A DNA stretch of 64,000 nt from Telluria mixta. Its GTDB lineage: Bacteria > Pseudomonadota > Gammaproteobacteria > Burkholderiales > Burkholderiaceae_D. Of the stretch, positions 5,321-30,046 are shown one piece after another. The stretch lies in contig NZ_CP119520.1 in NCBI RefSeq assembly GCF_029223865.1, forward strand, positions 310,001-374,000, read 5' to 3'. The translations under genes were made by a program, and so were the position numbers. Under the pieces are notes generated by a model. That model ran no database searches. It saw only the letters and a list, made by a program, of their open reading frames with translations, and had not been told where the DNA came from. Within the stretch, counting starts at the first letter, position 1; every line of letters starts with the position of its first letter.

Positions 5321-5345
5321 CAATCATATCAGTATCGATATCGGT
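5321..5345 (-). promoter_or_regulatory. Variant of the arabinose-region regulator site before the LysR gene
   Basis: Contains CAATCA and TCGATATCGGT separated by 8 bases, against 14 bases in the three main copies (near 10.99, 22.85 and 30.03 kb). The palindromic core ATATCGATAT runs up to 10 bases before the LysR start codon, which would suit autoregulation. Different spacing makes it a weaker match. Confidence 0.45.
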
Positions 5346-5369
5346 ATTGCGTAGATTTACGCAAAACTT

Positions 5370-6323
5370 TTATCGCTTGCAGGCTGCCGACGGATTGGCG
5401 GCAGGACCTTTTTCCGTCTGCGGCACGGGCAGGATCTTGCCGTCCGGACCGTAGTGCAGTTCTTCCATGGCGACCGAACGGCGGTACTCGCCACCCGTCG
5501 GCAGCTTGCCGTTGTGATAAATAATGTAGGACTTGCCGTTGAAGTCGATGATCGCGTGGTGGATCGTGCCGACGTTTGTGTTCTTTTCCATGATCACGCC
5601 GCCGTACGACCATGGGCCGGTGGCCGTCGGCCCCGTCATGTACACGGTCTCTTCCGGGAACTTGCGCGAGTACGACAGGTAGTACTTGCCGGCGTGCTTG
5701 TGCAGGTAGGACGCTTCCGTGAACTGGTCCAGGCCGACCGTGTGGATCGGGCCGTCCAGTTCCGTCATGTTCGGCTTCAGTTTGGCGTACTTCATGACGG
5801 TATTGCCCCAGTACAGGTAGGCCTGGCCATCGTCGTCGACGAAGATCGCCGGGTCGATGTCGTCCCAGCTGATTTCCGTCTCGTGCGTCATGTCGTTCGT
5901 GATCAGGGCCGTGCCCCGCGCGTCGACGAACGGGCCCGTCGGGCTGTCCGACACGGCCACGCCGATCGCCTTGCCGGGGATGGTCTTGTGCTCGACCGTC
6001 ACGTACAGGTAGTACTTGCCGTTGCGCTTGGTGACGTCGCTCGCCCAGGCGTCCTTCGCCGCCCACTTGAACGTGGAAAACGGCACACCGGCCGGGTGCT
6101 CGGTCCAGTTCTGCATGTCGCAGCTGGAGAACACCTTCCACTCGTTCATCACGTAATCCTTGCCGCCCACGGGCGCTTCGTCGCGGCCCACGTACAGGTA
6201 GACGCGGCCGTTGTCGACGAGGGCCGCGGGGTCCGCGGTGAAGATCTTGCTGGTGAGGGGATTGGCGGCACCGGCGAGCGCCGTCGTCGCGAACAGCGTC
6301 GCGGCAAGCGTGGTCTTGAGCAT
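5370..6323 (-). CDS. Secreted glycoside hydrolase family 43 (arabinosidase/xylosidase type)
   Basis: Five-bladed beta-propeller glycosidase, 317 aa, probably releasing L-arabinofuranose or xylose from plant polysaccharide. A signal peptide (about residues 1-20, cleavage near AGA-AN) sends it to the periplasm or outside. The three GH43 catalytic carboxylates are visible: Asp31 (TADPAAL, base), Asp157 (DDIDPAIF, pKa modulator) and Glu203 (QFTEASYL, acid). GGAGA lies 4 bases before the ATG. It sits between the end of the transporter operon and the LysR gene on the same strand and may be the operon's penultimate gene. The exact subfamily and the arabinose versus xylose preference cannot be read from the sequence. 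Confidence 0.88.
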   Translation of the reverse strand: MLKTTLAATLFATTALAGAANPLTSKIFTADPAALVDNGRVYLYVGRDEAPVGGKDYVMNEWKVFSSCDMQNWTEHPAGVPFSTFKWAAKDAWASDVTKRNGKYYLYVTVEHKTIPGKAIGVAVSDSPTGPFVDARGTALITNDMTHETEISWDDIDPAIFVDDDGQAYLYWGNTVMKYAKLKPNMTELDGPIHTVGLDQFTEASYLHKHAGKYYLSYSRKFPEETVYMTGPTATGPWSYGGVIMEKNTNVGTIHHAIIDFNGKSYIIYHNGKLPTGGEYRRSVAMEELHYGPDGKILPVPQTEKGPAANPSAACKR

Positions 6324-6428
6324 GTAGTCTCCGTTGTTTTTTGTGGAATCACCGGCGTTGGCGGCGCCGGGTACAGCCGCGGCCGCGCCCGCCCCCGTGT
6401 GGCCGGGGGTCGGTGCGCGGGTCCGCCT

Positions 6429-7412
6429 TTATTGTTTCGAACGTCCGCCCATCACCCTCTGCACGACGCAGAAGACGAACAGCAGCGCGCCGATGACGAT
6501 CTTGGTCCACCACGAGCTGAGCGTGCCGTCGAAGGCGATCAGCGTCTGGATGGCGCCCAGCACGAGCACGCCCGACAATGCACCCGCGATGTAGCCGTAG
6601 CCGCCGGTGAGGAGTGTCCCGCCGATGACGACGGCGGCGATGGCATCGAGCTCCGTGCCCTGGCCGTGCAGGCCGTAGCCCGACAGCATGTAGAAAGCGA
6701 ACAGCACGCCGCCCAGCGCCGCGCAGAAGCCCGACAGCGCATACACGAGGACCTTGGTGCGGCCCACGTTCAGGCCCATCATCGCGGCCGACTGCTCGTT
6801 GCCGCCGACGGCGTACACGGCGCGGCCGAACGCGGTGAAGTGCGCGAGCCAGATGGCGACCAGCAGCACGACGAGCGCGATGATGGCGCCCGGCGACAGG
6901 AAGCCGCCGAGGATCGGCACCTGCGTCTGCGACATCGCCGTGAACACCGGGTCGTCGATCGTGATCGACTCGACGCTGATCAGGTAGCACAGGCCGCGGG
7001 CGAGGAACATGCCGGCCAGGGTGACGATGAACGGCTGCAGCTTGAACAGGTGGATGATCGCGCCCATCGCGCCGCCGAAGCACGCGCCCAGCAGCAGCAC
7101 GAGCGCGACGACGGCGACCGGCGGCCAGTGCGCATGCTGCAGCAGCCAGGCCGAGATCATCGTCGACAGCGCGAGCACGGAACCGACGGACAGGTCGATG
7201 CCGCCCGCCAGGATCACGAAGCCCATGCCCACCGCGATCACGAGCAGGAACGCGTTGTCGATCAGGAGGTTGAAGATCACCTGCAGCGACAGGAAGCCCG
7301 GGTACACCGACCCGCCGATGCCCAGCATCGCCACGAGAAGGACGACGGTAACGAGGGACGTGAACCACGGCGCCGACGTGACGCCGCGGGTACCGGTTGC
7401 GACCGCGCTCAT
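6429..7412 (-). CDS. yjfF: Sugar ABC transporter permease, YjfF-like
   Basis: Second inner-membrane permease of a YtfQRT-YjfF importer, 327 aa, with about eight to ten hydrophobic segments and the family signature GMGFVILAGGIDLSVGSVLAL (around residues 63-83, split by the membrane) plus GGNEQSAAMMGLNV in the coupling loop. In E. coli the complex imports galactofuranose; a role for L-arabinofuranose here is inferred from the surrounding arabinan genes. Its start overlaps the stop of the YtfT gene by 4 bases (ATGA), and the four transporter genes run bottom to top in the order binding protein, ATPase, permease, permease. Confidence 0.9.
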   Translation of the reverse strand: MSAVATGTRGVTSAPWFTSLVTVVLLVAMLGIGGSVYPGFLSLQVIFNLLIDNAFLLVIAVGMGFVILAGGIDLSVGSVLALSTMISAWLLQHAHWPPVAVVALVLLLGACFGGAMGAIIHLFKLQPFIVTLAGMFLARGLCYLISVESITIDDPVFTAMSQTQVPILGGFLSPGAIIALVVLLVAIWLAHFTAFGRAVYAVGGNEQSAAMMGLNVGRTKVLVYALSGFCAALGGVLFAFYMLSGYGLHGQGTELDAIAAVVIGGTLLTGGYGYIAGALSGVLVLGAIQTLIAFDGTLSSWWTKIVIGALLFVFCVVQRVMGGRSKQ

Positions 7413-8443
7413 GCGGACCTCCGCAGGATGTTCTTGAATTCGCTCGACTGCGAGATGCAGACGACGAAGACGACGATGGATTTGACGACCATGTTCACTT
7501 CGGGCGGCACGCCCAGCGAATAGATCGTGTAGGTCAGGGTCTGGATGATCAGCGCGCCGATCATGCTGCCCACCAGGCTAAATTTGCCGCCGGCGAGCGA
7601 CGTGCCGCCCAGGGTGACGGCGAGGATCGCGTCCAGCTCCAGCAGCAGGCCCGCGTTGTTCGCGTCCGCGCTCTTGATGTTCGACGTGATCAGCATGCCG
7701 GCCAGGCCCGCACAGGCGCTGCAGAACACGTACACGAAGGTGATCAGGGTGGCGGTGCGCAGGCCCGCGAGGCGCGCCGCGACCGGATTGATGCCGACCG
7801 CCTGGATGAACAGGCCGAGGGCCGTCTTCTTCACCAGCAGCAGGGTCACCGCGAACACGGCCGCGACGACGAACAGCGAGAACGGCAGGCCGGCCAGGTA
7901 GCCGCTGCCCAGGAAGAAGAACGGCTCGTAGTACACGGTGACGATCTGGCCGTCCGTCAGCAGCTGCGCGAGACCGCGCCCCGCCACCATCAGGATCAGC
8001 GTGGCGACGATCGGTTGCAGCTTGATGCCGGCGACGAGGACGCCGTTCCACAGGCCGCACAGCAGCGCGACCCCCAGCGAGGCCGCCAGCGCGAGCGCCA
8101 TCGGCGTGGTCGGCTCGCTGCCGCCGATCAGCATCGCGGACACGGTGCCGGACAGCGCGACGACGGCGCCCACGGAGATGTCGATACCGCGCGTGGCGAT
8201 GACGAGGGTCATGCCGAGCGCCGCCAGCATCAGCGGCGCGGCGCGGTTGAGGATGTCGATGATCGCGCCGTACAGGTGGCCTTCCTTGACTTCCAGGTGG
8301 AAGAAGCCGGGTACGAGGAACGCGTCGACGAGCAGCAGCGCGACGAGCGCGCCGAGCGGACGCACGAGCGGATGCTGCAGCAGTGCTGCGCGCGATGCCG
8401 CCGCCTGCGCGGACGGTTTGACGGTAGCGCCGGTCGTGCTCAT
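7409..8443 (-). CDS. ytfT: Sugar ABC transporter permease, YtfT-like
   Basis: First permease of the importer, 344 aa. Hydrophobic segments begin near residue 30 and the family signature GMTLVIATRGIDISVGAVVAL-type stretch lies around 80-100; the coupling loop reads AVGINPVAARLAGLRT. The extra 20-30 N-terminal residues (Thr/Ala/Lys-rich) are cytoplasmic. GGGGAGA precedes the ATG by about 4 bases and the start overlaps the ATPase gene stop (ATGA). Together with the adjacent YjfF-like permease it should form a heterodimeric channel, as in E. coli. Confidence 0.92.
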   Translation of the reverse strand: MSTTGATVKPSAQAAASRAALLQHPLVRPLGALVALLLVDAFLVPGFFHLEVKEGHLYGAIIDILNRAAPLMLAALGMTLVIATRGIDISVGAVVALSGTVSAMLIGGSEPTTPMALALAASLGVALLCGLWNGVLVAGIKLQPIVATLILMVAGRGLAQLLTDGQIVTVYYEPFFFLGSGYLAGLPFSLFVVAAVFAVTLLLVKKTALGLFIQAVGINPVAARLAGLRTATLITFVYVFCSACAGLAGMLITSNIKSADANNAGLLLELDAILAVTLGGTSLAGGKFSLVGSMIGALIIQTLTYTIYSLGVPPEVNMVVKSIVVFVVCISQSSEFKNILRRSA

Positions 8444-9957
8444 GCCGTCTCCCCTGCGATCACGTGCAGCACGGACGTCTCGTCCAGTTCACCGCGCTGG
8501 TACTCGCCGCAGGCCTTGCGGTCGCGCATGACGACCATGCGGTCTGACACGCGCAGCACTTCCGGCAGCTCGGACGAGATGAAGAGAATGGACATGCCCT
8601 TGCGGCACAGGTTACTGACGTAATCCATGATTTCCTGCTTGGCGCGCACGTCGATGCCGCGCGTCGGTTCGTCGAGGATCATCAGGCGCGGATCGGTCGC
8701 GAGCCAGCGCGCCAGCAAGACCTTCTGCTGGTTGCCGCCGGAGAGCGTGCCGATCGGCGTCTCGATGCTGGCCGTCTTGATGCCCAGCCACTTGACGTAG
8801 TCGGTCGCCAGCTGCTGCTGGCGCTTGAAAGGAATGGCGCGGAAGATGCCCTGTCTCGCCTGCAGCGCGAGGATCAGGTTTTCGCGCACGGACAGCGCGA
8901 GGATCGCGCCTTCGTGCTTGCGGTCTTCCGAGCAGAAGCCGATGCCCTGCGCGATGGCGTCGCGCGGGTTCGAGAAGCTCACCTGCTTGCCGTCGATGTC
9001 GAAACTGCCGCTGTCGGCTTTATCGGCGCCGAACAGCAGGCGTGCCGTCTCCGTGCGGCCGGAGCCCAGCAGGCCGGCGAGGCCCAGCAATTCGCCGCGG
9101 CGGATTTCCAGGTCCACCGGCGACAGGACGCCCTTGCGCGCGATGCCGCGGGCGCGCAGGAAGACTTCGCCGTGTTCGTTGACTTCACCGGCGCCCGCCG
9201 TCTCCGCCGCGTGTTCCGCGTCGGCCGGCGCGCCGATCATCTTGTTGACGAGGGCAAGCCGCGACAGGTCCGCGCACGCGTACTCGCCTTCGCGCTCGCC
9301 GTTGCGCATGACCGTGATGCGGTCGGAGATCGCATACGTCTGGTCGAGGAAGTGCGTGACGAACAGGATCGCCATGCCCTCTTCGCGCAGGCGGCGCAGC
9401 ACCGAGAACAGCATCTGCACTTCCGCCTCGTCCAGGCTGGACGTGGGCTCGTCGAGGATCAGCACGCGCGATTCCGTGTTCAGCGCACGGGCGATGGCAA
9501 CCATCTGCTGGATCGCGAGCGGATAATCGGCGAGCGGCTTGCTGACGTCGACGTGGATCTCCAGGCGCGCGAGCAGCGCCGTGGCCTGCGACCGCATCGA
9601 GCGCCAGTCGACCATGCCGAAGCGGCGCGGATAGCGGCCGATGAAGATGTTTTCCGCGACCGACAGGTTCGGGCACAGATTGACTTCCTGGTAGACGGTG
9701 CTGATGCCGAGGTTCTGCGCATCCTGCGTGGAGCGCGGCTGGATCGCCCGCCCTTCCAGCACGATACTGCCGGCGTCCGGCTGGTAGACGCCGGTGAGGA
9801 CCTTGATCAGCGTGGACTTGCCCGCGCCGTTCTGGCCCATCAGCGTGTGGACTTCGCCGGGGAACAGGCGCAGTCCGGCATCGGACAGCGCCTTCACGCC
9901 CGGGAAGGCTTTATGGATGCCGGTGACTTCCAGCACCGGCTTCTTCGAATCGATCAT
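8440..9957 (-). CDS. ytfR: Sugar ABC transporter ATPase, YtfR-like (two nucleotide-binding domains)
   Basis: Energy-coupling subunit, about 505 aa, containing two fused ATPase domains as usual for monosaccharide CUT2 transporters. The N-terminal half has Walker A GQNGAGKST and Walker B RVLILDEPTSSLD; the C-terminal half has the degenerate Walker A GSGRTE, signature LSGGNQQKV and LMILDEPTRGID. I place the start at the ATG giving MIDSKKPVLEV; an upstream in-frame TTG overlapping the YtfQ stop would add five residues, and neither start has a good ribosome-binding site. Located between the binding-protein gene and the two permeases. Confidence 0.92.
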   Translation of the reverse strand: MIDSKKPVLEVTGIHKAFPGVKALSDAGLRLFPGEVHTLMGQNGAGKSTLIKVLTGVYQPDAGSIVLEGRAIQPRSTQDAQNLGISTVYQEVNLCPNLSVAENIFIGRYPRRFGMVDWRSMRSQATALLARLEIHVDVSKPLADYPLAIQQMVAIARALNTESRVLILDEPTSSLDEAEVQMLFSVLRRLREEGMAILFVTHFLDQTYAISDRITVMRNGEREGEYACADLSRLALVNKMIGAPADAEHAAETAGAGEVNEHGEVFLRARGIARKGVLSPVDLEIRRGELLGLAGLLGSGRTETARLLFGADKADSGSFDIDGKQVSFSNPRDAIAQGIGFCSEDRKHEGAILALSVRENLILALQARQGIFRAIPFKRQQQLATDYVKWLGIKTASIETPIGTLSGGNQQKVLLARWLATDPRLMILDEPTRGIDVRAKQEIMDYVSNLCRKGMSILFISSELPEVLRVSDRMVVMRDRKACGEYQRGELDETSVLHVIAGETA

Positions 9958-9968
9958 GCTCGACCCGA

Positions 9969-10934
9969 TCAATACTTGCGGTTCGGGAGTTCCTTCGCCG
10001 CCACCTCAGCCGGGAACACGCCCTCGTTGACGACGATGCGCTTCGGGACCGGCTTGCCGGCCACGACGTCCTGCGCCGTCTGGATCAGCGTCGGACCAAG
10101 CAGCGGATTGCACTCGACCGTCACGTTCAGCTTACCGGCCTTCATGGCTTCGAACGCGCCTTTCACGCCATCGATCGAGATGATGATGATGTCCTTGCCC
10201 GGCTTCAGGCCCGCTTCCTCGATGGCCTGGATGGCGCCGATGGCCATGTCGTCATTGTGCGCGTACAGCACGTTGATCTTCTTGCCTTCCGACTTCAGGA
10301 AGGCCTCCATGACTTCCTTGCCCTTGGCGCGGGTGAAGTCGGCCGTCTGCGAGCGGATGACCTTCAGCTTCGGATTCGCGCCGATGACTTCGGCGAAACC
10401 GTTCTTGCGGTCGATCGCGGGCGCGGCACCGGTCGTGCCCTGCAGCTCGACGATGTTCAGCGGCTTGTCGCCGTTCTTCTTCGCGTACTCCAGCAGCCAG
10501 CGGCCGGCGCGGCGGCCCTCTTCCACGAAGTCGGAACCGATGAAGCTGACGTACAGCGACGGATCGGTGACCTTGACGGCGCGGTCGGTCAGGATCACGG
10601 GGATCTTGGCATTCTTCGCTTCGCGCAGCACGGTCTCCCAGCCGGTTTCCACGACAGGCGAGAACGCGATGACGTCGACGCGCTGGGCGATGAACGAGCG
10701 GATGGCCTTGACCTGGTTCTGCTGCTGTTGCTGGGCGTCGGCGAATTTCAGGTTGACGGCGGCCTTCTTGGCGGCGTCCTTGATCGAGGCGGTATTCGCG
10801 GTGCGCCATTCGCTTTCGGCGCCGACCTGCGAGAAGCCGATCGTGAGGGGTTTGGCGGCGAATGCCGGGATGGCGGCGGCGCACGCGATGGCGGCAGCTG
10901 CGCCCAGGAGGGTCCTGCGGGTGATGATCATCAC
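9969..10934 (-). CDS. ytfQ: Sugar-binding protein, YtfQ-like
   Basis: Periplasmic substrate-binding protein of the importer, 321 aa. Residues 1-27 are a signal sequence containing TRRTLLGAAAA, a twin-arginine-like pattern, so Tat export is possible, though an ordinary Sec signal cannot be excluded. The mature part closely follows E. coli YtfQ motif by motif: LTIGFSQVGAESEWR, QNQVKAIRSF, VVETGWE, VELQGTTGAAPAIDRK, DFTRAKGKEVMEAF and YAHNDDMAIGAIQAIEEAGLKPGKD. YtfQ binds galactofuranose and related furanoses; here L-arabinofuranose is the likely ligand by context. First gene of the transporter operon, with its own regulated promoter. Confidence 0.93.
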   Translation of the reverse strand: MMIITRRTLLGAAAAIACAAAIPAFAAKPLTIGFSQVGAESEWRTANTASIKDAAKKAAVNLKFADAQQQQQNQVKAIRSFIAQRVDVIAFSPVVETGWETVLREAKNAKIPVILTDRAVKVTDPSLYVSFIGSDFVEEGRRAGRWLLEYAKKNGDKPLNIVELQGTTGAAPAIDRKNGFAEVIGANPKLKVIRSQTADFTRAKGKEVMEAFLKSEGKKINVLYAHNDDMAIGAIQAIEEAGLKPGKDIIIISIDGVKGAFEAMKAGKLNVTVECNPLLGPTLIQTAQDVVAGKPVPKRIVVNEGVFPAEVAAKELPNRKY

Positions 10935-10960
10935 TTAGTCTCCGGAATTGTTGTGCATGG

Positions 10961-11019
10961 ATACTATGACAGAACTGACATATCTATCCAATCATTTTTT
11001 TGACGGTAGACATATCCAT
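10961..11019 (-). promoter_or_regulatory. Regulated promoter of the YtfQ transporter operon
   Basis: Read on the minus strand: a half-conserved GGATATG core, 14 bases, then TGATTGGAT whose TTGGAT acts as -35, then 19 bases and TAGTAT as -10 (plus-strand 10961-10966). The same layout with a better palindrome is found before the dehydratase operon and the TonB receptor. This copy keeps only ATATC of the palindrome. The leader to the YtfQ start is short (about 20 bases) with GGAG before the ATG. Confidence 0.55.
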
Positions 11020-11042
11020 TTTGGCATCAATACAAATGACGA

Positions 11043-15795: not shown

Positions 15796-15798
15796 GCC

Positions 15799-17352: not shown

Positions 17353-17395
17353 GTGGTCTCCATTAGGGTGGTTGTATTGTTGTGAAGTGCAGAAT

Positions 17396-17430: not shown

Positions 17431-17459
17431 GATGGGGAGGAAAAGGACAGGCGTCCTGG

Positions 17460-18227: not shown

Positions 18228-18257
18228 CGTCGTCTCCTTACTCTTATTCTATGTGTA

Positions 18258-18326: not shown

Positions 18327-18349
18327 GACGTATGCGGCTTGTTGGCGTA

Positions 18350-19930: not shown

Positions 19931-20919
19931 AAGGTCTTCACTTTCGCGAATTGAGTAGATTGTACGGCGAGCTTGTTACGCAGTGCGGGGCCGAATTGCG
20001 GCGATTCGACTTCGAAGGTCTCGCCGGCCTGTACGCTGATGTTGTCGGCGAAGCTCAGGGTCGCGGTACCGAAGAAGTGGATGTGCACGTCGCCCGGGCG
20101 GTTGAACAGGCCGTACTTGAAGTGGTGGTATTCCAGGTTGCCGATCGTGTGCGACATGTTCTGCTCGCCCGACACGAACGCCTTTTCCCAGCGCACGGAG
20201 CCGTCGGCGGCGCGGATGCGCGACACGCCTTCGACGTGGGCCGGCAGCTCGCCGACCAGCAGCGCCGGACCGATGCCGCAGTTGCGCAGCTTGGAGTGCG
20301 CGAGGTACAGGTAGTTCTGGCGTTCCGTCACGTGGTCCGAGAACTCGTTGCCGATCGCGAAACCGACGCGGTATGGCTGGCCGTCGTCGCCGATCACGTA
20401 CAGGCCGGCGATCTCCGGCTCTTCGCCGCCGTCCAGCGAGAAGTCCGGCATTTCCATGTCCTGGCCGCTGGCGCGCACGATCGAGCCGTCGCCCTTGTAG
20501 AACCATTCCGGCTGCACGCCGGCCTTGCCCGCTTCCGGCTTGCCGCCTTCGACGCCCATGCGGAACATCTTCATGGAGTCGGACAGCGTCTCGACGTCGC
20601 CGCCGATCTTCTTGTGCATGGCGTCGCGCGTGTCGGCGCTGCCCAGGTGCGTCAGGCCCGTGCCGGTGACGTAGGTGTGGGCGGCGTCCGGATGGTCGAG
20701 CGGGGCCAGCACGCGGCCTGCCTGCGCGATCGCTTCGTACGATTCGGTGTCGCCTTTGGCGGCGGCGTCTGCCAGGACGGCCAGGCCCTTGCCCTGCGCG
20801 ATGGCGGCCTGCGCGAGTTCCAAGGTGGTGGCGTAGCCGGTGATGGCGGTGACGGTGTCACCGTTCAGGATGCCGACGCGGCGGTCGCCGGTGGCGGATT
20901 TGTATTGGATGAGCAGCAT
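19927..20919 (-). CDS. AraD1/GguC-family 2-keto-3-deoxy-pentonate dehydratase
   Basis: FAH-superfamily protein of the AraD1/GguC family, 330 aa, expected to dehydrate 2-keto-3-deoxy-L-arabinonate to 2-oxoglutarate semialdehyde. This substitutes for the aldolase-fold AraD of Azospirillum. An N-terminal 60-70 residue domain precedes the FAH fold; motifs include YVTGTGLTHLGSA, EWFYKGDG, the acidic metal site GGEEPEIAGLYVI and IGNEFSDHVTE. Position directly between the L-arabinonate dehydratase and KGSADH genes, and coupling to the latter, support the role. Reaction assigned from family knowledge and context. Confidence 0.85.
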   Translation of the reverse strand: MLLIQYKSATGDRRVGILNGDTVTAITGYATTLELAQAAIAQGKGLAVLADAAAKGDTESYEAIAQAGRVLAPLDHPDAAHTYVTGTGLTHLGSADTRDAMHKKIGGDVETLSDSMKMFRMGVEGGKPEAGKAGVQPEWFYKGDGSIVRASGQDMEMPDFSLDGGEEPEIAGLYVIGDDGQPYRVGFAIGNEFSDHVTERQNYLYLAHSKLRNCGIGPALLVGELPAHVEGVSRIRAADGSVRWEKAFVSGEQNMSHTIGNLEYHHFKYGLFNRPGDVHIHFFGTATLSFADNISVQAGETFEVESPQFGPALRNKLAVQSTQFAKVKTL

Positions 20920-20935
20920 AGTGGGATCTCAAATA

Positions 20936-20998
20936 GCGCGTGGGCTCGGAGAGCCCACCCTACGCAACACGGTAGGGTGGGCACCCCGTGCCCACGCG
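20936..20998. repeat. Long palindromic repeat, copy 2 (GTAGGGTGGGC family)
   Basis: Left arm 20936-20963 (GCGTGGGCTCGGAGAGCCCA core) pairs with right arm 20972-20998 (GTAGGGTGGGCACCCCGTGC core). The arms match copy 1 at 18258-18326 with one or two changes; the spacers differ (8 bases here against 14). It lies between the L-arabinonate dehydratase and AraD1-family genes. Confidence 0.85.
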
Positions 20999-21008
20999 AA
21001 TGCCAACA

Positions 21009-22814: not shown

Positions 22815-22872
22815 AGTCTAAAGGCCGATAAGATAACTTTCCAATCAATTTTTAGCAGCAATCGATATCGTT
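22815..22872 (-). promoter_or_regulatory. Regulated promoter of the L-arabinonate dehydratase operon
   Basis: Minus strand: AACGATATCGA (22862-22872), 14 bases, TGATTGGAA with TTGGAA as -35 (22839-22844), 18 bases, TAGACT as -10 (22815-22820). The palindrome CGATATCG would centre about 60 bases before the start of transcription, where LysR-type activators bind. Same sequence and spacing as at 29989-30046. Confidence 0.65.
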
Positions 22873-22891
22873 ATCGGCATCGCTGTTACCG

Positions 22892-23779
22892 CTATCGGCG
22901 CCGACCAGCGAATTTCACCTCTGCCAAGCCCTTAACTGGTAGCAATTTTGCAAATACGCCGCCCGATTTTGGTGCATCTGCCAGCTGGCCGGCCTGCAGG
23001 CCGACTGTTGCGGAAGTGACATACAAGACGTCCAGGCCGGGTCCGCCGAACGCCGGACACGTCGGTTGCGGGGCGGGCAGCGTCAATACGCGATCGACGG
23101 CGCCGTCCGGGGCGAAGCGCACGACCTGCCCCGCGCCCCAGCGCGTGCTCCACAGATAGCCGTCCGCGTCGATGGTCGAGCCGTCCGGATCGCCCGGCGC
23201 CGCGTCGGCCGCCGCGAATTCGCGCAGGTTGGCAATGGCGCCCGTGTCCGGATCATAGTCGCAGCAGCGGATCTCGCGCGTGCCCGAATCCGCGTAATAC
23301 ATCGTGCGGCCGTCGGGGCTGAAGCAGATGCTGTTGGCGATGGCGACGCCGCCCAGCGGCAGGCGCTCCAGCGACAGGTCGTGATTCAGCCGGTAGAAAC
23401 CGCCGATGGGATCCTTCGGGTTCTCGGCCTGGTTGAACACGCCGAACACGAAGCGGCCCTGGCGGTCGGTGCGGCCGTCATTGAGACGCGTGGTGGGCAG
23501 GTGCGCCTCGACGTCGCAGATGCGGTCGAGTTCTCCGCTGGCCAGGTCGAAGAACGCGAGACCCGACGCGAGACCCAGCAGCAGGCGGCCGTCGTCGTGC
23601 GTCAGCGCCATGGAGCACAGGCGCTCGGGCAGCGGCCAGCGCTGCAGCGCGCCCGTTGCGGGTGCGTGCGACCACAGTTCGCTGCCTTCGATGTCGGTCC
23701 AGAACAGGCGTGCGCCCTTGTCGTCCCAGATGATCCCCTCGCCGAGCACGTGCCGGCCATCCACCACCAGTTCCATCAT
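22892..23779 (-). CDS. SMP-30/gluconolactonase family L-arabinolactonase
   Basis: Opens L-arabino-gamma-lactone to L-arabinonate, the second pathway step; about 295 aa, cytoplasmic, six-bladed beta-propeller with a divalent metal. Motifs: HVLGEGIIWDD (metal Glu), TRLNDGRTDRQGRFVFGVF, GVAIANSICFSPDGRTMYYADS, DPDGSTIDADGYLWSTRWGAGQV and the final PTCPAFGGPGLDVLYVTSA. I start at the first of two adjacent ATGs, with GGAGA about 8 bases upstream; the open frame extends 21 residues further but those look non-coding. It follows the mutarotase gene by 22 bases. Confidence 0.9.
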   Translation of the reverse strand: MMELVVDGRHVLGEGIIWDDKGARLFWTDIEGSELWSHAPATGALQRWPLPERLCSMALTHDDGRLLLGLASGLAFFDLASGELDRICDVEAHLPTTRLNDGRTDRQGRFVFGVFNQAENPKDPIGGFYRLNHDLSLERLPLGGVAIANSICFSPDGRTMYYADSGTREIRCCDYDPDTGAIANLREFAAADAAPGDPDGSTIDADGYLWSTRWGAGQVVRFAPDGAVDRVLTLPAPQPTCPAFGGPGLDVLYVTSATVGLQAGQLADAPKSGGVFAKLLPVKGLAEVKFAGRRR

Positions 23780-23801
23780 CGATTTTTCTCCAGTCTCCTG
23801 A

Positions 23802-24860
23802 TTACTGCGCCACCGAGAAGCGGAAGCGCGATTCCGTTTCATAGACTTCGCCCGGACGCAGGATCGTGTTCGGGTACGCCGGCTGGTTGGGCGAATCCGG
23901 GTAGTGCTCCGGCTCGATGCAGAAGCCGCTGCGGAAAATCCAGGGATGGCCCTTGCCGCTCAGCGAGCCGTCGAGGAAGTTACCGCTATAGAACTGCACG
24001 CCCGGTTCCTGGGTGAACAGTTCCAGCACGCGGCCCGACGTCGGTTCGCACACGTGGACGGCACGCTTCAGGCCGCGCTCGCCGAGATTGCGGTTCAGCA
24101 CCCAGCAATGGTCGTAACCGGTGCCGTGGCGCAGTTGCTTGTCCGGTTGTTCGATGCGCTCGCCGATGGTGCGCGGCTTGCGGAAATCGAATGGCGTACC
24201 GGTCACGGGGGCCAGTTCGCCGAACGGGATCGATTCCGCGTCGATGGGCACGAACTTGTCGGCGTCGATCGTCATCTCGTGGGCCAGGACGTCGCCCTGC
24301 CCTGCGCCGGCCAGGTTGAAATAGCTGTGCTGGGTCAGGTTGACGGGCGTCGGCTGGTCGGTCACGGCGTGGAAGCGCACGACGATCTCGTTATCGTCGG
24401 TCAGCAGATACGTGGCGGTGGCATCGAGGTTGCCGGGATAGCCCTGCTCGCCGTCCGGGCTGTGGTAGCGCAGGACGAGGCCGTCGCCTTCGACGGCGGC
24501 CGTCCACAACACCTTGTCGTAGCCCGGATCGCCGCCGTGCAGGTGGTTGTTGCCGTTGTTGGTCGTCAGCTGGTACTGCTTGCCGTCGAGCGTGAAGCGA
24601 CCCTTGCCGATGCGGTTGCCGTAGCGGCCGATCAGGGCGCCGAAATACGGGCTGTCCTTGATGTAGGGCTCGAGCGTCTCGAAGCCGAGTGCGACGTCGG
24701 CAAAGACGCCGTCGCGGTCCGGGACGTGGATCTCGGTGATGATACCGCCGAAATCCAGCACCTTCACGACCATGCCGTTGTTGTTCTTGAGCGTGTACTG
24801 CGACACTTGCCGACCGTCGGGCAAAGTCCCGAACGGCGCCTGGGTAATTCCGTTTTGCAC
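23802..24860 (-). CDS. Aldose 1-epimerase (galactose mutarotase family)
   Basis: Interconverts sugar anomers, speeding supply of the right form of L-arabinose to the dehydrogenase; 352 aa. No signal peptide, so cytoplasmic. The core residues of the GalM family are visible: the NRIGKGRF stretch, NNGNNHLHGG (His), the catalytic His in LTQHSYFNLAG, and Glu in the GVQFYSGNFLDG / PEHYPDSPNQP region. It lies between the cytoplasmic GH43 gene and the lactonase gene with 12-22 base gaps, consistent with one transcript. Confidence 0.93.
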   Translation of the reverse strand: MQNGITQAPFGTLPDGRQVSQYTLKNNNGMVVKVLDFGGIITEIHVPDRDGVFADVALGFETLEPYIKDSPYFGALIGRYGNRIGKGRFTLDGKQYQLTTNNGNNHLHGGDPGYDKVLWTAAVEGDGLVLRYHSPDGEQGYPGNLDATATYLLTDDNEIVVRFHAVTDQPTPVNLTQHSYFNLAGAGQGDVLAHEMTIDADKFVPIDAESIPFGELAPVTGTPFDFRKPRTIGERIEQPDKQLRHGTGYDHCWVLNRNLGERGLKRAVHVCEPTSGRVLELFTQEPGVQFYSGNFLDGSLSGKGHPWIFRSGFCIEPEHYPDSPNQPAYPNTILRPGEVYETESRFRFSVAQ

Positions 24861-24872
24861 GTTGTTATATCC

Positions 24873-25823
24873 TCAGAGGGTGGATGGCCGCCCGAATACC
24901 GGCATGCCGTTCTCGTCCCAGCGCAGCGGTTTGACGAAGGTATGGCGGTCCGGGTTCCACAACGGATCGCCGACGATTTCCGTATAAGTGCGCGCGTGGT
25001 AGACGAGCATGACGGTGTCGCCATCTTCAGCATAGGTAAAGCTGTTGTGGCCGGGTCCGTAGATGCCGTGATCGTAGCATGTACGGAACACGGGCTCACG
25101 CGACTTTGTCCACACGGCCGGATCGAGCAGGTCCGCATTCTCGTCGGCCCACAGCAGGCCCATCGCGTAATTCTCGTCGGTGGCGCTGGCGGAATACGAG
25201 ATGAAGATCTTGCCGTTGCGGCGCAGGACGGACGGACCTTCGTTGACCCAGAAGCCGCGGATTTCCCAGTCGTACTCGGGCTTCGAAAGCAGCACGGGCT
25301 TGCCTTCGATCTGCCACGGCGTCTTCATCTTCGCGATGTACAGGTTCGAATTGCCTTCGATCTCGTTGTCCTTCTGCGCCCACAGGTAGTACAGCACGCC
25401 GTTGTGGTTGAACGTGGTCGCGTCCAGGCAAAAAGTGTCGATGCCCGTGTCGACCTGGCCCATGAATTCCCACGTGCCTTCGAGCGGATTCGCGTTCGTG
25501 TTACGGATCGCGTACATGCGGTGCTGGAACAGCTTGTACTTGATCTCGCGGCTCGGCGCGGCGGCGAAATAGACGTACCACGCGCCCATGTTGAAGTGCA
25601 TTTCCGGTGCCCAGATCAGCTCGCTGTAAGGGCCCGTGTCCGGCTTCACCCACGCATCGACGGTGGGCGCGGTGGCCAGCCCGGCGATCGTCTTCGCGCG
25701 GCGCAGTTCGATGCGGTCGTATTGCGGGACCGAGGCGGTGAAATAGTAATAGCCGTCCGTATGCTTGTAGATGTACGGGTCGGCACGTTGTTCGATAAGG
25801 GGTTTCAGGACGGTGTCTTGCAT
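24873..25823 (-). CDS. Cytoplasmic GH43 (exo-acting arabinofuranosidase type)
   Basis: GH43 beta-propeller enzyme, 316 aa, with no signal peptide; expected to finish hydrolysis of arabino-oligosaccharides after import. Catalytic Asp15 (EQRADPYIY) is near the N-terminus; the later Asp in DTFCLDATTF and Glu in WVNEGPSVL fit the other two catalytic positions. IWAPEMHFNMGAWYVYFAA and YGPGHNSFTYAEDG are family signatures. It follows the GPH symporter gene by 18 bases and precedes the mutarotase, which supports an oligosaccharide import, cut and catabolise order. Exact linkage preference unknown. Confidence 0.88.
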   Translation of the reverse strand: MQDTVLKPLIEQRADPYIYKHTDGYYYFTASVPQYDRIELRRAKTIAGLATAPTVDAWVKPDTGPYSELIWAPEMHFNMGAWYVYFAAAPSREIKYKLFQHRMYAIRNTNANPLEGTWEFMGQVDTGIDTFCLDATTFNHNGVLYYLWAQKDNEIEGNSNLYIAKMKTPWQIEGKPVLLSKPEYDWEIRGFWVNEGPSVLRRNGKIFISYSASATDENYAMGLLWADENADLLDPAVWTKSREPVFRTCYDHGIYGPGHNSFTYAEDGDTVMLVYHARTYTEIVGDPLWNPDRHTFVKPLRWDENGMPVFGRPSTL

Positions 25824-25841
25824 GTTGTTCTCGCTAGTGAA

Positions 25842-27182
25842 TCACGCGCTGGCGCGGAGGTCTTCCTTGACTGTCGAATAGTATTCATCGCTGATGCGGT
25901 ACTTGAACATCAGCGCGCCCATCAGGAAATGGAAGAAGCCGGGAATCACGGACAGCATCAGCGCGATGCCCTGCAGCGCCAGCGCGCTCTGTTCCTGGTT
26001 CGGCTGGTAGTGGAAATAATTCAGCAGCAGGCCGACCATGCCGCCCGCGAGTCCCATGCCCGCCTTCTGCGCGACCGAGATGCCGCCGAACGCGAAGCCC
26101 GACACGCGCTTGCCCGTCTTGACCTGGCCATAGTCGATGGTCTCGGCGATCGCGGACCAGAATACCGGCGCGTGCAGGTCGACGACGAGCGACAGCAGGA
26201 AGTACAGGACGAAGGCCAGTGCCGTGTCGCCCGGCTTGACCAGGAAATAAATCATCACTGACAGCACCGCCACCATCAGCTGCGTGTAGCGGAACAGTTT
26301 GACTTTGCAATAGAACTTGGTCACCCACGTCGACACGACCATCGCGATGATCGCGGCCGCGACGCCTGTCGACAGGAACGCGGACACGGTCTCGGTGTCG
26401 CCGTGCAGATAATACTTGGCGTAATAGATCGCGACGGAGCCGCGGATCACGTAGCCGATGGTGCCCGTCACGCACACGGCGCACAGGATCAGCCACTGGT
26501 CGTTCTGTGCCAGCACCGCGATCTGTTCCATCAGCGGCTGGCGCTTCGTCTTGTAGACGACTCTTTCCGTCGTCGTGAAGAAGGTGAACAGGAACAGCAC
26601 GACACCCAGCAGCGCCATCAGGGCCATCGCCGCCTGGTAGCCGGCGGCCTGGTTGCCGTTGCCCCAGCGCTGCGCGAGGATCGGCACGACGATGGTGACC
26701 ATGAACGCGCCGACCTTCGCCAGGAACAGCCGGTAGCCGTTGGCGGACAGGCGCTCCTGCGGGTCGCTCGTCAGGCCGCTGATCAGCGAGATGTACGGCA
26801 CGCCCACGCCCGACGTCATGAGGGTCATCAGGATGTACGTGGAATAGGCCCACACGAGCTTGGCGTCATAGTTCCAGTCCGGCGTGCTGAACACGGCGTA
26901 CACCGACAGGCCGTACGGGATCGCGAGGAACAGGAAATACGGCCGATAGCGGCCCCAGCGGGAGAGGAAGGTGTCCGTCATCTGGCCGACGATCAGGTCG
27001 GAAATGGCGCCCACGATCTTGACGAGCACGAACAGCAGCGCGAGGTCGGTCGTCTTGAGGCCATAGACGTCCGTATAAAAGAAAGTGATGATCAGCATCA
27101 TCGATGAGATCACCACGTTGAGCGCCATGTCGCCGGCGCCGAAGCCCACTTTTTCGAGAGTGGAAAGTTTCTGGGTTTGCAT
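25842..27182 (-). CDS. GPH-family sugar:cation symporter
   Basis: Inner-membrane transporter of the glycoside-pentoside-hexuronide family (MelB/XynB-like), 446 aa, 12 predicted membrane segments. Family features: FGAGDMALNVV near the start, DLIVGQMTDTFLSRWGRYRPY in the loop between segments 2 and 3, SGVGVPYISLISGLTSDPQERLSANGYR and the long central cytoplasmic loop near 210. Placed between the TonB receptor and a cytoplasmic GH43, it most likely moves arabino-oligosaccharides from the periplasm to the cytoplasm with H+ or Na+. Substrate is inferred from neighbours. Confidence 0.9.
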   Translation of the reverse strand: MQTQKLSTLEKVGFGAGDMALNVVISSMMLIITFFYTDVYGLKTTDLALLFVLVKIVGAISDLIVGQMTDTFLSRWGRYRPYFLFLAIPYGLSVYAVFSTPDWNYDAKLVWAYSTYILMTLMTSGVGVPYISLISGLTSDPQERLSANGYRLFLAKVGAFMVTIVVPILAQRWGNGNQAAGYQAAMALMALLGVVLFLFTFFTTTERVVYKTKRQPLMEQIAVLAQNDQWLILCAVCVTGTIGYVIRGSVAIYYAKYYLHGDTETVSAFLSTGVAAAIIAMVVSTWVTKFYCKVKLFRYTQLMVAVLSVMIYFLVKPGDTALAFVLYFLLSLVVDLHAPVFWSAIAETIDYGQVKTGKRVSGFAFGGISVAQKAGMGLAGGMVGLLLNYFHYQPNQEQSALALQGIALMLSVIPGFFHFLMGALMFKYRISDEYYSTVKEDLRASA

Positions 27183-27204
27183 AGGGACGTCCTTCCAAAC
27201 GACG

Positions 27205-27247
27205 AGGGTGCTACCCGGATTTTCCGCGCAGCACCCTGATTATTGCC
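27205..27247 (-). other. Stem-loop between TonB receptor and symporter genes
   Basis: AGGGTGCT (27205-27212) pairs with AGCACCCT (27240-27247) across 27 bases in the 84-base gap. No U-tract follows on the minus strand. It could partly end or stabilise the receptor message, giving more receptor than symporter. Confidence 0.4.
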
Positions 27248-27266
27248 TAACGATTAGAAACCTGGA

Positions 27267-29909
27267 TCAGTGTTTCCAACGGAGGGCAAAGCCGACGACA
27301 CGGTCATAACGGCGCACGTCACGGGGCAGCAGCGGGGTACCGTGGTAATCGTGGTACTCCTGGTCCAGCAGGTTGCTGCCGTCCAGCGTCGCCGTCAGGT
27401 TGTCCGTGATCTTGTACGAGATCGAGGCATCCAGCGTCTTGATCGGGTCCACGACCAGGTTCAGGCCGAGGCCGCGGTAGTTGTACGTGTCCACGAACTT
27501 GTCGCGCCAGTTGTAGGCCAGGCGCGCCGACCACGGGCCGCGCTCGTACAGGCCGACCAGGTTGTAGGCCCGCTTGGACATGCCCGGGAACGTGTTGCGG
27601 GTGCCGTCCGGCTCCGTCATGCCGCCGTTCATGTACGTGAAGTTCGCCTGCATGCCCAGGCCGCTCAGCCAGCCCGGCAGGAACGAGAAGAACTGCTGGT
27701 ACGCCGCTTCGAAGCCGTACAGCTTGGCCGTGTCCGTGTTGTACGGACGGTCCATCAGGTAGGCCTGGCCGTTGATCGTTTCCGTCGTCGTCTTGTGGCG
27801 GATGAAGTTCTTGAAGTCGTGCTGGAATGCCGTACCGGTCAGCGAACCGTCCTTCGAGAAATACCACTCCAGCGAGACGTCCAGGTTGCGGGCTTCCTGC
27901 GGCTTCAGGTTCGGGTTGCCGCCTGCACCGCCCGGCGGATTGCCGTTGGTCGTGGTGACGGAACCGAGCACGACGCCGGGGTTGTAGTCGCCGAACGCGG
28001 CGCGCTCGATCGCCTTGCCGTAGACGACGCGGCCGACCAGGTCGTTGCGGAAGTTGGCGCGCACGTTCAGGCTCGGCAGCACGTCCGTATTGCTGGTCGA
28101 GACCGACACCGGCGTGACGGGACCCGTCCCGCTGCGCGAGTTGCCGTTGACGCTCTGCTTGGTGTTCACGACGCGCACGCCGGCCGTCGCATCGATCGGC
28201 ACGCCGAAGGCGTCGAAGCCGAGCTTGGCCTTGCCGTAGATGGCTTGCGACGTTTCGCGGTCCGTGTAGAGCGACAGCGGATCGTCCGGCAGGCCGTTCG
28301 GCGTGCCGAGGATGGCCTGGCGCACGACGGAGGTATTATCCAGCAGGAACTTGTAGCAGGCGGCGTAGTACTGGTTCAGGCCATAGTTGCCGTGGGTCTC
28401 CGGGCTCAGGCACGACAGGCCGGGGACGCTGCCCGGATTCTGGCCAGTGATCGTCGCCGGACGGTAGTTGCCCAGTTCGTGCGCATACGAGGCGTCGCGT
28501 TGCGCCCAGCGCAGGCCGCCGCTCAATTCCTTCAGCAGACCGTCGTTTTCCGGGGTCCACGTCACGTCGCCGCGCCAGTCGTTGGACGCGCCGTTCGCGT
28601 GGTTGTGGTTGTCGTACAGCGCGATCATGGTCCACTTGGACGGATCGGTCAGGTCCGTGCCCGGATAATCGACATAGCCGCCGCCGTCGCGGGTGCCGCC
28701 GACGACCGCATGGGGCGCCGTATAGATCGAGTCGAGGATCGGGTTTTCCTGGCGGTAGGTCGAGACCGTGCGTACGGCCTCGGTCGACAGGCGGATCGTC
28801 GGCGTCGCGTCCCACGTGCCGCCGAGGGCCAGCTGGCTGCCCTTCGACCAGTCGCGGCGCGCCTGCGTCGAGCTCAGCACCAGCGACGTGTCGCTCGGAT
28901 TGCTGATGCTGTCCAGGTAGTTCTTGCCGTTCTCGGTGATCGTCTTGATCGTCGACGTCGGGCTGTTCACGGGGAAACCGCCGACGAAGAACACGCTCTG
29001 CGCGTCATGGTCGATCTTGGTGCCGAAGCCTTCCGCATAGAACTGCATGTCGCGGTTCGGGCGCCACTGGGCCGCGAAGTTCAGGGCCAGGCGCTTGCGG
29101 TCGCCCGTCGTCATCACGCGGCCGTTGCCGTCCGCGCCCTGCACGGTCTGGCCGTTGGCCTGGTACGTGGCCGGCTGGCCGGCCCATGCCACTTCGTCGC
29201 TGTAGCGGCCGCGCTGGTACGACAGGCCGCCCAGCAGGCCGACTTCGCCGATGTCGGTCTTCCAGCGGTTCGACCACAGGCCGCCGACCTGCGGATCGGT
29301 CTTGCCGGCCTTGTCGCGGTTTTCGGCGCGGGCGTTGATGGCGACCTGCGAACCCTTGAAGTCGAACGGACGGAAGGTGCGCACGTCGATGGTGCCCGCG
29401 GTGCCGCCTTCGACCATGTCGGCGCCCTGCGATTTATAGACATCCACGCGCTGCAGCATCGAGACCGGCACGTCGGCCAGGGCCAACGAACGGCTGGCGG
29501 CGGTGAACATCTCGCGGCCATTGAACAGCGTCTTCGCGCCACCCAGGCCGCGGACCACGACCGTGCTGGCTTCGCCGGCACCGCGCAGGACCTGCACGCC
29601 GGTGACGCGGGCCAGGATCTCGGCCACGTTCTTGTCCGGGAATTTACCGATGTCGTCGGCGACGATCGAATCGAGGACCTGGTCCGCGTTTTTCTTGATC
29701 GTCTGGGCGCTCTGCGCCGCCTGGCGCTGGCCGCTGACGACCACGACGTTGCTGCCGTTGGCCTGGTTGGCGTCCTGGGAGGCGCCGGCGTCCTGGGCGC
29801 GGACGGAAACACTCGTCAACAGGCCAATGCCCATGAGTGCGGCCACCGTGCCGCGCAGTGCGAAGGCGCGCGAAGCGGGTGCAAAACGACCCGATGCGAT
29901 GGGTTCCAT
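27267..29909 (-). CDS. TonB-dependent receptor (Caulobacter type), likely arabino-oligosaccharide uptake
   Basis: Outer-membrane gated porin, 880 aa. A signal peptide (about residues 1-38, SVRA-QD), then a plug domain with KFPDKNVAEILARVTGVQVLR- and VVVRGLGGAKTLFNGRE-type motifs (about 75-240), and a 22-strand barrel ending in the aromatic pattern VGFALRWKH (final aromatic-x pattern with H, slightly atypical). A TonB box candidate VVVVSGQ lies near residue 55. AGGAG sits 4 bases before the ATG. It heads the import operon with the GPH symporter and cytoplasmic GH43 and has a strong regulated promoter. Ligand assigned by context. Confidence 0.9.
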   Translation of the reverse strand: MEPIASGRFAPASRAFALRGTVAALMGIGLLTSVSVRAQDAGASQDANQANGSNVVVVSGQRQAAQSAQTIKKNADQVLDSIVADDIGKFPDKNVAEILARVTGVQVLRGAGEASTVVVRGLGGAKTLFNGREMFTAASRSLALADVPVSMLQRVDVYKSQGADMVEGGTAGTIDVRTFRPFDFKGSQVAINARAENRDKAGKTDPQVGGLWSNRWKTDIGEVGLLGGLSYQRGRYSDEVAWAGQPATYQANGQTVQGADGNGRVMTTGDRKRLALNFAAQWRPNRDMQFYAEGFGTKIDHDAQSVFFVGGFPVNSPTSTIKTITENGKNYLDSISNPSDTSLVLSSTQARRDWSKGSQLALGGTWDATPTIRLSTEAVRTVSTYRQENPILDSIYTAPHAVVGGTRDGGGYVDYPGTDLTDPSKWTMIALYDNHNHANGASNDWRGDVTWTPENDGLLKELSGGLRWAQRDASYAHELGNYRPATITGQNPGSVPGLSCLSPETHGNYGLNQYYAACYKFLLDNTSVVRQAILGTPNGLPDDPLSLYTDRETSQAIYGKAKLGFDAFGVPIDATAGVRVVNTKQSVNGNSRSGTGPVTPVSVSTSNTDVLPSLNVRANFRNDLVGRVVYGKAIERAAFGDYNPGVVLGSVTTTNGNPPGGAGGNPNLKPQEARNLDVSLEWYFSKDGSLTGTAFQHDFKNFIRHKTTTETINGQAYLMDRPYNTDTAKLYGFEAAYQQFFSFLPGWLSGLGMQANFTYMNGGMTEPDGTRNTFPGMSKRAYNLVGLYERGPWSARLAYNWRDKFVDTYNYRGLGLNLVVDPIKTLDASISYKITDNLTATLDGSNLLDQEYHDYHGTPLLPRDVRRYDRVVGFALRWKH

Positions 29910-29988
29910 ACGTCTCCTATTGCTATGTAAGTATTGTTATGTTTCAGAAAGCCTAGAAACGCTTTCAGAACTGGCATGCTTATCGGTA

Positions 29989-30046
29989 ATGTTAGGCGCA
30001 ACATCGAGAACGATCCAATCAAATTTTCGGCAACTTCGATATCGTT
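29989..30046 (-). promoter_or_regulatory. Regulated promoter of the TonB receptor operon
   Basis: Minus strand: AACGATATCGA (30036-30046), 14 bases, TGATTGGAT with TTGGAT as -35 (30013-30018), 18 bases, TAACAT as -10 (29989-29994). Sequence and spacing match the dehydratase-operon promoter. In the leader, TTCAGAAAGC (29943-29952) and GCTTTCAGAA (29961-29970) form an imperfect inverted repeat that could be a second operator or a hairpin. Confidence 0.65.

What the first reader, a model, noticed from the sequence alone, without database searches (positions are those of the whole stretch)
5321..30046. A shared LysR-type regulatory element unites the arabinose promoters
Three minus-strand promoters (transporter operon at 10961-11019, dehydratase operon at 22815-22872, TonB receptor operon at 29989-30046) have the same layout: a CGATATCG palindrome, exactly 14 bases, TGATTGGA(T/A) containing a -35 TTGGAT/TTGGAA, then a -10 at 18-19 bases. 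Two copies are near-identical; the transporter copy keeps only ATATC. A spacing variant lies before the LysR gene itself. Centred near -60, the palindrome is where LysR activators bind. This predicts a local regulon run by the GbpR-like protein and gives a motif to search for elsewhere in the genome.
Basis: partly seen in the sequence, partly recalled or inferred. Interest (0 to 1): 0.72.

Follow-up and report, generated by a model that had tools for sequence, protein, structure and literature searches.

The report
LysR operator of a Massilia arabinose regulon
A roughly 50-base DNA switch, most likely bound by one LysR-type regulator, sits before the three arabinose operons of this soil bacterium and before about nine more plant-sugar and receptor genes scattered round its chromosome, and related versions occur before sugar genes in distant proteobacteria; it makes a little-defined sugar regulator directly testable.

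Summary
Corrections: the CGATATCG-TGATTGGA gap is 15 nt; the transporter copy keeps GATAT. The palindrome is only one arm of an 18-bp dyad (GATA-N10-TATC) centred near -65; TGATTGG belongs to a second site over the -35: the LysR recognition/activation layout. The regulon is not local: nine further promoters elsewhere precede TonB-receptor and glycoside-hydrolase genes, and a -10 box lies at 18-19 nt in 11 of all 12. The element precedes 39 of 39 orthologous dehydratase genes in 62 same-genus genomes and 0 of 3 paralogues; 46 of 55 LysR loci not used for the model hold it; it stands before chvE in Azospirillum and Rhizobium. The linked LysR gene is the best-supported regulator (phyletic match, divergent arrangement in other genera, half-site at its own start). 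Binding, inducer and direction of control are untested. A known kind of regulator, with a wide regulon that I found described in no paper searched.

The parts
4375..5316 (-). LysR-type regulator gene (313 aa), last gene of the transporter operon; predicted regulator
   Evidence: Pfam HTH_1 + LysR_substrate; below the cut-off of each of the 25 NCBIfam models shown of 55; 82-100% orthologue in 38 of 62 same-genus genomes plus a partial one in G023
5325..5342 (-). Recognition half-site GATATCGATACTGATATG at -26 to -9 of the LysR start codon, no activation half; proposed autoregulatory operator
   Evidence: score 24.4 vs 99th percentile 9.3 of background; 48 of 80 LysR loci above that percentile on either strand, 44 on the forward strand; coordinates
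10979..11028 (-). Composite operator of the transporter operon: recognition site 11011-11028, activation site 10979-10993
   Evidence: (score 66.9)
10961..10991 (-). Core promoter of transporter operon: -35 TTGGAT 10986-10991, 19 nt, -10 TAGTAT 10961-10966
4375..10934 (-). Transporter operon: YtfQ-like binding protein 9969-10934, ATPase 8440-9972, permeases 7409-8443 and 6429-7412, GH43 5370-6323, LysR 4375-5316
   Evidence: operon membership inferred from co-direction and short gaps
22832..22881 (-). Composite operator of the dehydratase operon: recognition site 22864-22881, activation site 22832-22846
   Evidence: (score 72.8); present before 39 of 39 orthologues
22815..22844 (-). Core promoter of dehydratase operon: -35 TTGGAA 22839-22844, 18 nt, -10 TAGACT 22815-22820
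12446..22751 (-). Dehydratase operon: L-arabinonate dehydratase type 21009-22751, AraD1 19927-20919, aldehyde dehydrogenase 18350-19930, SDR sugar dehydrogenase 17460-18227, arabinofuranosidase ArfA-like 15799-17352, GH43 AbnA-like 14794-15795, GH127 12446-14797
   Evidence: operon membership inferred
30006..30055 (-). Composite operator of the TonB-receptor operon: recognition site 30038-30055, activation site 30006-30020
   Evidence: (score 65.8)
29989..30018 (-). Core promoter of TonB-receptor operon: -35 TTGGAT 30013-30018, 18 nt, -10 TAACAT 29989-29994
22892..29909 (-). TonB-receptor operon: receptor 27267-29909, GPH symporter 25842-27182, GH43 24873-25823, GalM-type epimerase 23802-24860, SMP-30/lactonase 22892-23842
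   Evidence: operon membership inferred

Best explanation
The element is a bipartite LysR-type operator of fixed geometry, used by the regulator encoded at 4375-5316. A dimer of the tetramer sits on the recognition site (GATA-N10-TATC, centre about -65); when the sugar inducer (L-arabinose or a close relative such as D-galactose, inferred) binds, the other dimer is placed on the activation site (GATTGG-N5-TATC type, centre about -32, overlapping a poor -35 TTGGnn) and recruits RNA polymerase. It switches on uptake, oxidative breakdown and polymer-cleaving genes at about twelve promoters genome-wide. Because the LysR gene is the last gene of one target operon, induction should raise its own level, while a recognition-only site at its start gives a local brake. 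Shown: element, geometry, conservation, target genes, phyletic match. Inferred: that this protein binds it, the inducer, activation rather than repression, and the feedback.
For: Own genome: 12 promoters, all 12 before glycoside-hydrolase, TonB-receptor, sugar-binding-protein or dehydratase genes; 11 score >=21.9 and the weak twelfth -1.9; TANNNT at 18-19 nt in 11 of 12, though -10 was not used for selection. Recognition-site centre to the end of -10 is 58-59 nt, so about -65. Genus: 65 of 104 pattern matches have exactly N17 (reversed-pattern control 13 matches over the same 62 genomes); 63 of those 65, but 23 of 39 off-spacing ones, are in the 39 genomes with the LysR orthologue. 48 of 62 N17 sites lie before cluster homologues against 2 of 35 off-spacing matches, both homologues under 37% identity. 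39 of 39 dehydratase orthologues vs 0 of 3 paralogues. 46 of 55 LysR loci outside the matrix's source contigs, column-shuffled matrix 0 in 40 shuffles. In other genera the element lies in the LysR divergent spacer. LysR start carries the recognition half in 48 of 80 loci. Distant homologues: the best site beats all 60 shuffles in 10 of 12 hand-picked loci, including the A. brasilense and R. leguminosarum chvE promoters. No LysR-like gene at 1e-6 beside the distal own sites.
Against: G013 has dehydratase and element but no LysR orthologue. 9 of 55 held-out loci and 4 of 17 other-genus loci (L130, L140, L142, L143) show no site. 32 of 80 LysR starts lack a clear half-site. Strict T-N11-A is not met by the symmetric arms. 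Halomonas (15 of 60 shuffles reach it) and A. thermophilum (4 of 60) are not significant. The GH43 site at 5441611 lacks the left arm and one TonB receptor site (5421379) lacks a TANNNT -10. No binding, expression or inducer data.
Confidence: 0.87

Rival explanations
1. Another regulator binds the element, for instance the paralogous LysR protein about 40% identical at genome position 5551977-5552885, and the linked LysR gene is a bystander.
For: The paralogue is the second-best match in the genome; LysR paralogues can share half-sites; G013 has element and dehydratase without the orthologue.
Against: Eight same-genus genomes have the 38-40% paralogue without the orthologue (G006, G011, G032, G034, G046, G048, G049, G050) and none has an N17 site, whereas 13 genomes with the orthologue and no paralogue listed have arm-bearing sites (one search scored at most 36 candidates a genome, so a paralogue could be missed). 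The element lies in the divergent spacer of the orthologue in several genera.
Confidence: 0.06
2. The conserved stretch is only a promoter (or an UP-like A-tract promoter) shared by related operons, with no LysR operator.
For: It contains -35, A-tract and -10 at regular spacing.
Against: A GATA/TATC dyad at about -65 is conserved, is found alone at the LysR start codon, and the element's presence tracks the LysR gene.
Confidence: 0.03
3. The element is a LysR operator but works mainly as a repressor site, with the sugar relieving repression.
For: The activation-type site overlaps the -35; LysR proteins repress at some promoters (PMC8407307, passages read).
Against: The -35 boxes (TTGGnn) are weak matches to TTGACA (recalled consensus), as expected for activator-dependent promoters; GbpR is described as regulating chvE in the presence of sugars (PMC4086400, one passage).
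Confidence: 0.1

Closest known systems
GbpR-chvE/sbpA of Agrobacterium and Azospirillum (LysR galactose-binding-protein regulator)
   Same: Homologous regulator (42.8% to the A. brasilense chvE-linked LysR; 35% to the chvE-linked R. leguminosarum one); an element of the same layout before chvE in both; GbpR regulates chvE in the presence of sugars (PMC4086400, one passage).
   Different: There the regulator sits beside chvE, and I looked for elements only within about 9 kb of it; here it would control about twelve scattered promoters including TonB receptors and glycoside hydrolases. That the A. brasilense protein is GbpR rests on its chvE neighbour and recalled literature; the record says only LysR family.
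gbpR cluster of Roseobacter litoralis (PMC3141670, one passage)
   Same: gbpR listed next to a sugar-binding protein, ABC transporter, L-arabonate dehydratase and a galactose dehydrogenase.
   Different: Only a gene list was seen; no operator.
AraR (LysR family) of Halomonas, oxidative L-arabinose pathway (PMC5507952, passages)
   Same: LysR protein predicted, with a DNA motif, to control a divergent operon with mutarotase, ABC transporter and arabinonate dehydratase.
   Different: Predicted to control only that divergent operon and itself; its motif is in a supplement I could not read; the Halomonas homologue locus I fetched (another strain) has the layout by eye but is not significant under my matrix.
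PcaQ (LysR regulator of protocatechuate genes)
   Same: Best NCBIfam model hit, 183.1 bits.
   Different: Far below its 303.8-bit cut-off, and the neighbourhood is arabinose, not aromatic.

Membership tests
LysR-type transcriptional regulator (protein) | N-terminal HTH_1 and C-terminal LysR substrate-binding domain | tested here: met
   PF00126 1.1e-19 and PF03466 3.7e-35, both above curated cut-offs
LysR-type operator | Dyad recognition site centred near -65 | tested here: met
   GATA-N10-TATC centre 58-59 nt before the end of -10 in the 11 own promoters with a -10; start sites themselves not mapped
LysR-type operator | Activation site overlapping the -35 | tested here: met
   GATTGG-N5-TATC stretch contains the -35 TTGGnn; at that place TATC in 25 and ATC in 31 of 65 genus sites, so the right arm is looser than the recognition dyad
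LysR-type operator | T-N11-A box within the dyad | tested here: not met
   Symmetric arms give T-N12-A in the recognition site and T-N9-A in the activation site (read); variants N9 and N10 are on record (PMC8407307 passage), N12 I saw in no passage
LysR-type operator | Regulator divergent from, or next to, a target, with autoregulatory site | tested here: met
   Divergent in other genera; recognition half at LysR start in 48 of 80 loci
LysR-type operator | Protein binds it; inducer changes binding | not testable with these tools
   needs purified protein
GbpR/AraR group | Homologous regulator with sugar-oxidation and ABC-transporter neighbourhood | tested here: met
   best match tested in one direction over a whole genome only
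GbpR/AraR group | Response to L-arabinose/D-galactose/D-fucose | not testable with these tools
   PMC4042000 passage names these sugars for SbpA chemotaxis; inducers of GbpR recalled
PcaQ | NCBIfam TIGR02424 above cut-off | tested here: not met
   183.1 vs 303.8 bits

The most novel reading that the evidence does not exclude
This is one ancestral operator with fixed spacing, kept by a single LysR clade (GbpR/AraR) from Rhizobium and Azospirillum to Burkholderiales, which in Massilia has come to stand in front of scattered TonB receptors and glycoside hydrolases to build a genome-wide arabinan/arabinogalactan scavenging regulon; the regulator gene sits at the end of a target operon, giving positive feedback with a recognition-only brake at its own start.
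Probability: 0.6. Interest if true: 0.62.

Novelty: new member of a known kind. Interest (0 to 1): 0.52.

Why it matters
It turns a three-promoter guess into a sharp, falsifiable map: one regulator, one 50-bp operator, about twelve promoters, including five TonB receptors whose substrates can now be guessed as arabinose-containing glycans. It also offers an operator for GbpR-type regulators of plant-associated bacteria, for which I saw no binding site in the listings and passages of ten paper searches (subscription papers are not in that library), and a route to assign function to unknown receptors and hydrolases in related genomes by the same motif.

Tried and rejected
A loose family-wide pattern search was of no use: 260 of 294 genomes have a match, and only part of the matches was listed. 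One search failed to turn minus-strand loci and was redone. One search assigned some identical strings to the wrong genome; it was redone as (N17 sites; off-spacing sites), which under equal rules gives 2 of 35, not the 1 of 35. One search used a pattern one base short and was redone. The candidate at 6623225 (score 24.4) was dropped after the fact: no TTGG, no -10, and no Pfam family in the two reading frames it faces that I gave; a GH43 gene lies on its other side. Considered and rejected: PcaQ as name (below cut-off); a local regulon (nine distal promoters). AraC-type or other control was not searched for systematically; no such family appeared among the hits shown for the window proteins I scanned. 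Rows not examined: 4 of 39 off-spacing matches (G048, G059, G060, G061) were not fetched, 9 of 55 held-out loci had no site >=25 (L280, L283, L284, L286, L292, L296, L298, L299, L301), some on short contigs; the 55 were set apart from the training genus by me from LysR identity and contig lengths, not by a taxonomy call, 32 of 80 LysR starts are not above background; the 12 distant loci were picked by hand from the rows listed (40 of 128 records; 44). Of six N17 sites without the left arm, three downstream frames were given to Pfam and none was a sugar gene. GATAT and TGATTGG are fixed by the pattern, so their conservation in that set is no evidence; the left arm, the -10, the gene context and the 39 dehydratase promoters are.
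Full report
WHAT WAS CHECKED. The three promoters were read on the minus strand and the motif located by script. All three carry TGATTGGA, at 10987-10994, 22840-22847 and 30014-30021, and it occurs nowhere else in the window. Upstream, two copies have CGATATCG with 15 nt before TGATTGGA; the transporter copy has GGATATGT in register. In the whole 7.44 Mb genome GATAT-N14..20-TGATTGGA has three matches, exactly these, and the reversed pattern none.

ANATOMY. Comparison with relatives shows that the palindrome is one arm of a larger dyad. In the 65 N17 sites of the genus (62 plus 3 own), GAT stands exactly 12 nt before GATAT in 49 and AT one base on in 59; at every other offset GAT is rare except for 14 at -6. 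That arm was not used to find these sites. In the 39 dehydratase promoters, found through the protein and then aligned by the motif, TATC is kept in all 39, GATATC in 26, GGTATC in 12, AGTATC in 1, the full CGATATCG in only 17, and the left arm reads GATA, GATG, AATA or CATA in all. So the unit is GATA-N10-TATC. Downstream, GATTGG-N5-TATC overlaps the -35 TTGGnn. A -10 of the form TANNNT lies at 18 or 19 nt in 55 of 59 genus sites with the left arm (own three included) and in 11 of 12 own sites. The dyad centre is 58-59 nt before the end of -10, hence about -65, with the second site at about -32: the recognition/activation layout described for LysR proteins (PMC8407307, passages). The strict T-N11-A box is not met; the arms give T-N12-A and T-N9-A.

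CHANCE. A 56-column weight matrix from 55 unique genus sites scores the three window sites 65.8-72.8. Sixty dinucleotide shuffles of the window reach at most 0.5; the best score in 35 fetched control loci is 5.3. The own sites are in the training set, so the fair tests are the next ones.

OWN GENOME. A first relaxed search (up to 3 mismatches, control 0) gave eight sites: the three plus five, and all five face glycoside-hydrolase or TonB-receptor genes (Pfam). A fuller pattern including the left arm (24 hits, control 1) splits cleanly: 12 score 21.9 or more, 12 score -1.9 or less. Dropping 6623225 (24.4, no -35 or -10), the set is: binding protein 320988, dehydratase 332841, TonB receptor 340015 (window); arabinofuranosidase PF09206 702313, TonB receptor 888671, GH39 1219829, GH3 3545065, TonB receptor 5421379, melibiase-type (alpha-galactosidase, GH27 by recall) 5615030, TonB receptors 6279005 and 6631218; plus a weak GH43 member, 5441611 (-1.9), which lacks the left arm but has -35 and -10. 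Of the 11 remaining chance hits I tested five by Pfam; none had a sugar-related family downstream, and none of the 11 has both TTGG and a TANNNT at 18-19 nt. No LysR-like gene is found at 1e-6 in the 14-19 kb fetched round each distal site, so control would be in trans. Other regulator families were not looked for there.

RELATIVES. In 62 same-genus genomes 65 of 104 matches have N17 and the other six spacings share 39; the reversed pattern has 13 matches in all. 63 of the 65 are in the 39 genomes with the LysR orthologue (38 full at 82% or more, one partial), against 23 of the 39 off-spacing ones. Of 62 non-own N17 sites, 48 lie before homologues of the binding protein (9), dehydratase (25), TonB receptor (7), symporter (6) or epimerase (1). 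Of the other 14, eight have the left arm: seven face GH39, two GH43, a TonB receptor, two melibiases and an MFS transporter, and one (G045, L185) had no Pfam hit in the frame I gave, though another frame translates to a protein like the G002 GH43 (by eye). The six without the arm look like chance. Off-spacing matches under the same rule: 2 of 35 fetched, both remote homologues under 37% identity. The LysR orthologue and the dehydratase co-occur in 38 genomes; G023 has a partial LysR only, and G013 the dehydratase only. All 39 dehydratase orthologues have the element (lowest score 51.3), none of three paralogues (best -6.7). The dehydratase orthologues are related by descent, so they are not 39 independent events.

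OTHER GENERA. Of 17 other-genus LysR loci fetched, 13 have a site of 30 or more (L130, L140, L142, L143 have none); it lies before the binding protein or dehydratase in some and in the LysR divergent spacer in G260, G136, G081, G172, G206, G208 and G126, of genera g6, g15, g21, g26, g28 and g40. Among 80 named LysR loci (Massilia, Janthinobacterium, Pseudoduganella, Duganella, Undibacterium, Rugamonas, Roseateles and others) 55 are not from contigs that supplied the matrix; 46 have a site of 25 or more, 39 of 35 or more, and column-shuffled matrices none in 40 trials. Many are close relatives. Farther out, 12 loci of homologues (35-59% identical where measured) were picked by hand: in 10 the best site beats all 60 shuffles, namely B. 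multivorans, Paraburkholderia, Caballeronia, Diaphorobacter, a comamonad, two Azospirillum, Pseudoroseomonas, Shinella and R. leguminosarum; Halomonas and A. thermophilum fail. In A. brasilense three elements (23.3, 22.5, 5.7) stand before chvE, before ytfQ and in the LysR/lactonase spacer; in R. leguminosarum one (11.4) stands before chvE.

REGULATOR. The LysR gene is the only LysR-like gene in the window (1e-6). Its own start carries the recognition half alone; in 48 of 80 loci, among them all 15 named Janthinobacterium, the LysR start exceeds the 99th percentile of background. It is the best match in this genome of the A. brasilense chvE-linked LysR (252 bits against 210 for the next). The paralogue at 5551977 is not a good rival: eight genomes with it and without the orthologue have no N17 site.

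MECHANISM. Shown by sequence: geometry, conservation, targets. Inferred: binding, activation, inducer. The LysR gene is the last gene of the transporter operon, so activation should feed back on it; the half-site at its start could damp this. The organism is a Massilia by LysR identity (100% to Massilia sp. Root133, M. phosphatilytica and M. kyonggiensis).

KNOWN. GbpR is reported to regulate chvE with sugars (PMC4086400, one passage); a LysR AraR with a motif was predicted for Halomonas, controlling the divergent operon (PMC5507952, passages). The listings and passages of ten searches of the open library showed no GbpR operator and no Massilia arabinose regulon; subscription papers and supplements were not available. 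Verdict: an ordinary kind of regulator with an unusually well-defined and wide regulon; the finding is right at its core and understates the extent.

Noticed in passing
L147 (G013, contig C9), locus 12898-12953: A full-scoring element (70.7) stands before the dehydratase in a genome where no LysR orthologue was found (best 29%); either a lost regulator, an assembly gap or another regulator.
   Followed up: partly
L149 about 631-729 and L185 about 624-729 (G002, G045): Back-to-back composite elements on opposite strands between the symporter operon and, in G002, a GH43 gene: a divergent double operator.
   Followed up: partly
5325-5342: Recognition half-site alone at the LysR start codon, conserved at about -26 in many related loci though the gene lies at the end of the operon.
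   Followed up: partly
L352 (genome 5412000-5431000), 4344-8347: An aldehyde dehydrogenase 57% identical to the cluster enzyme and a lactonase homologue lie about 1-5 kb from the distal TonB receptor operator, perhaps a second sugar-acid cluster.
   Followed up: no
31027-33144 +: PAS-GGDEF-EAL protein just outside the arabinose cluster, on the opposite strand.
   Followed up: no
L343 / L353 (genome 5441611): GH43 promoter with A-tract, ATTGG and -10 in place but no left dyad arm; may be a decayed or weak operator.
   Followed up: partly
L345, 4226-4266 (genome 6623225): An arm-bearing dyad without -35 or -10 near a GH43 gene on the other strand, 8 kb from the TonB receptor operator at 6631218.
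   Followed up: partly
2637-3575 -: D-2-hydroxyacid dehydrogenase gene downstream of the LysR gene on the same strand.
   Followed up: no
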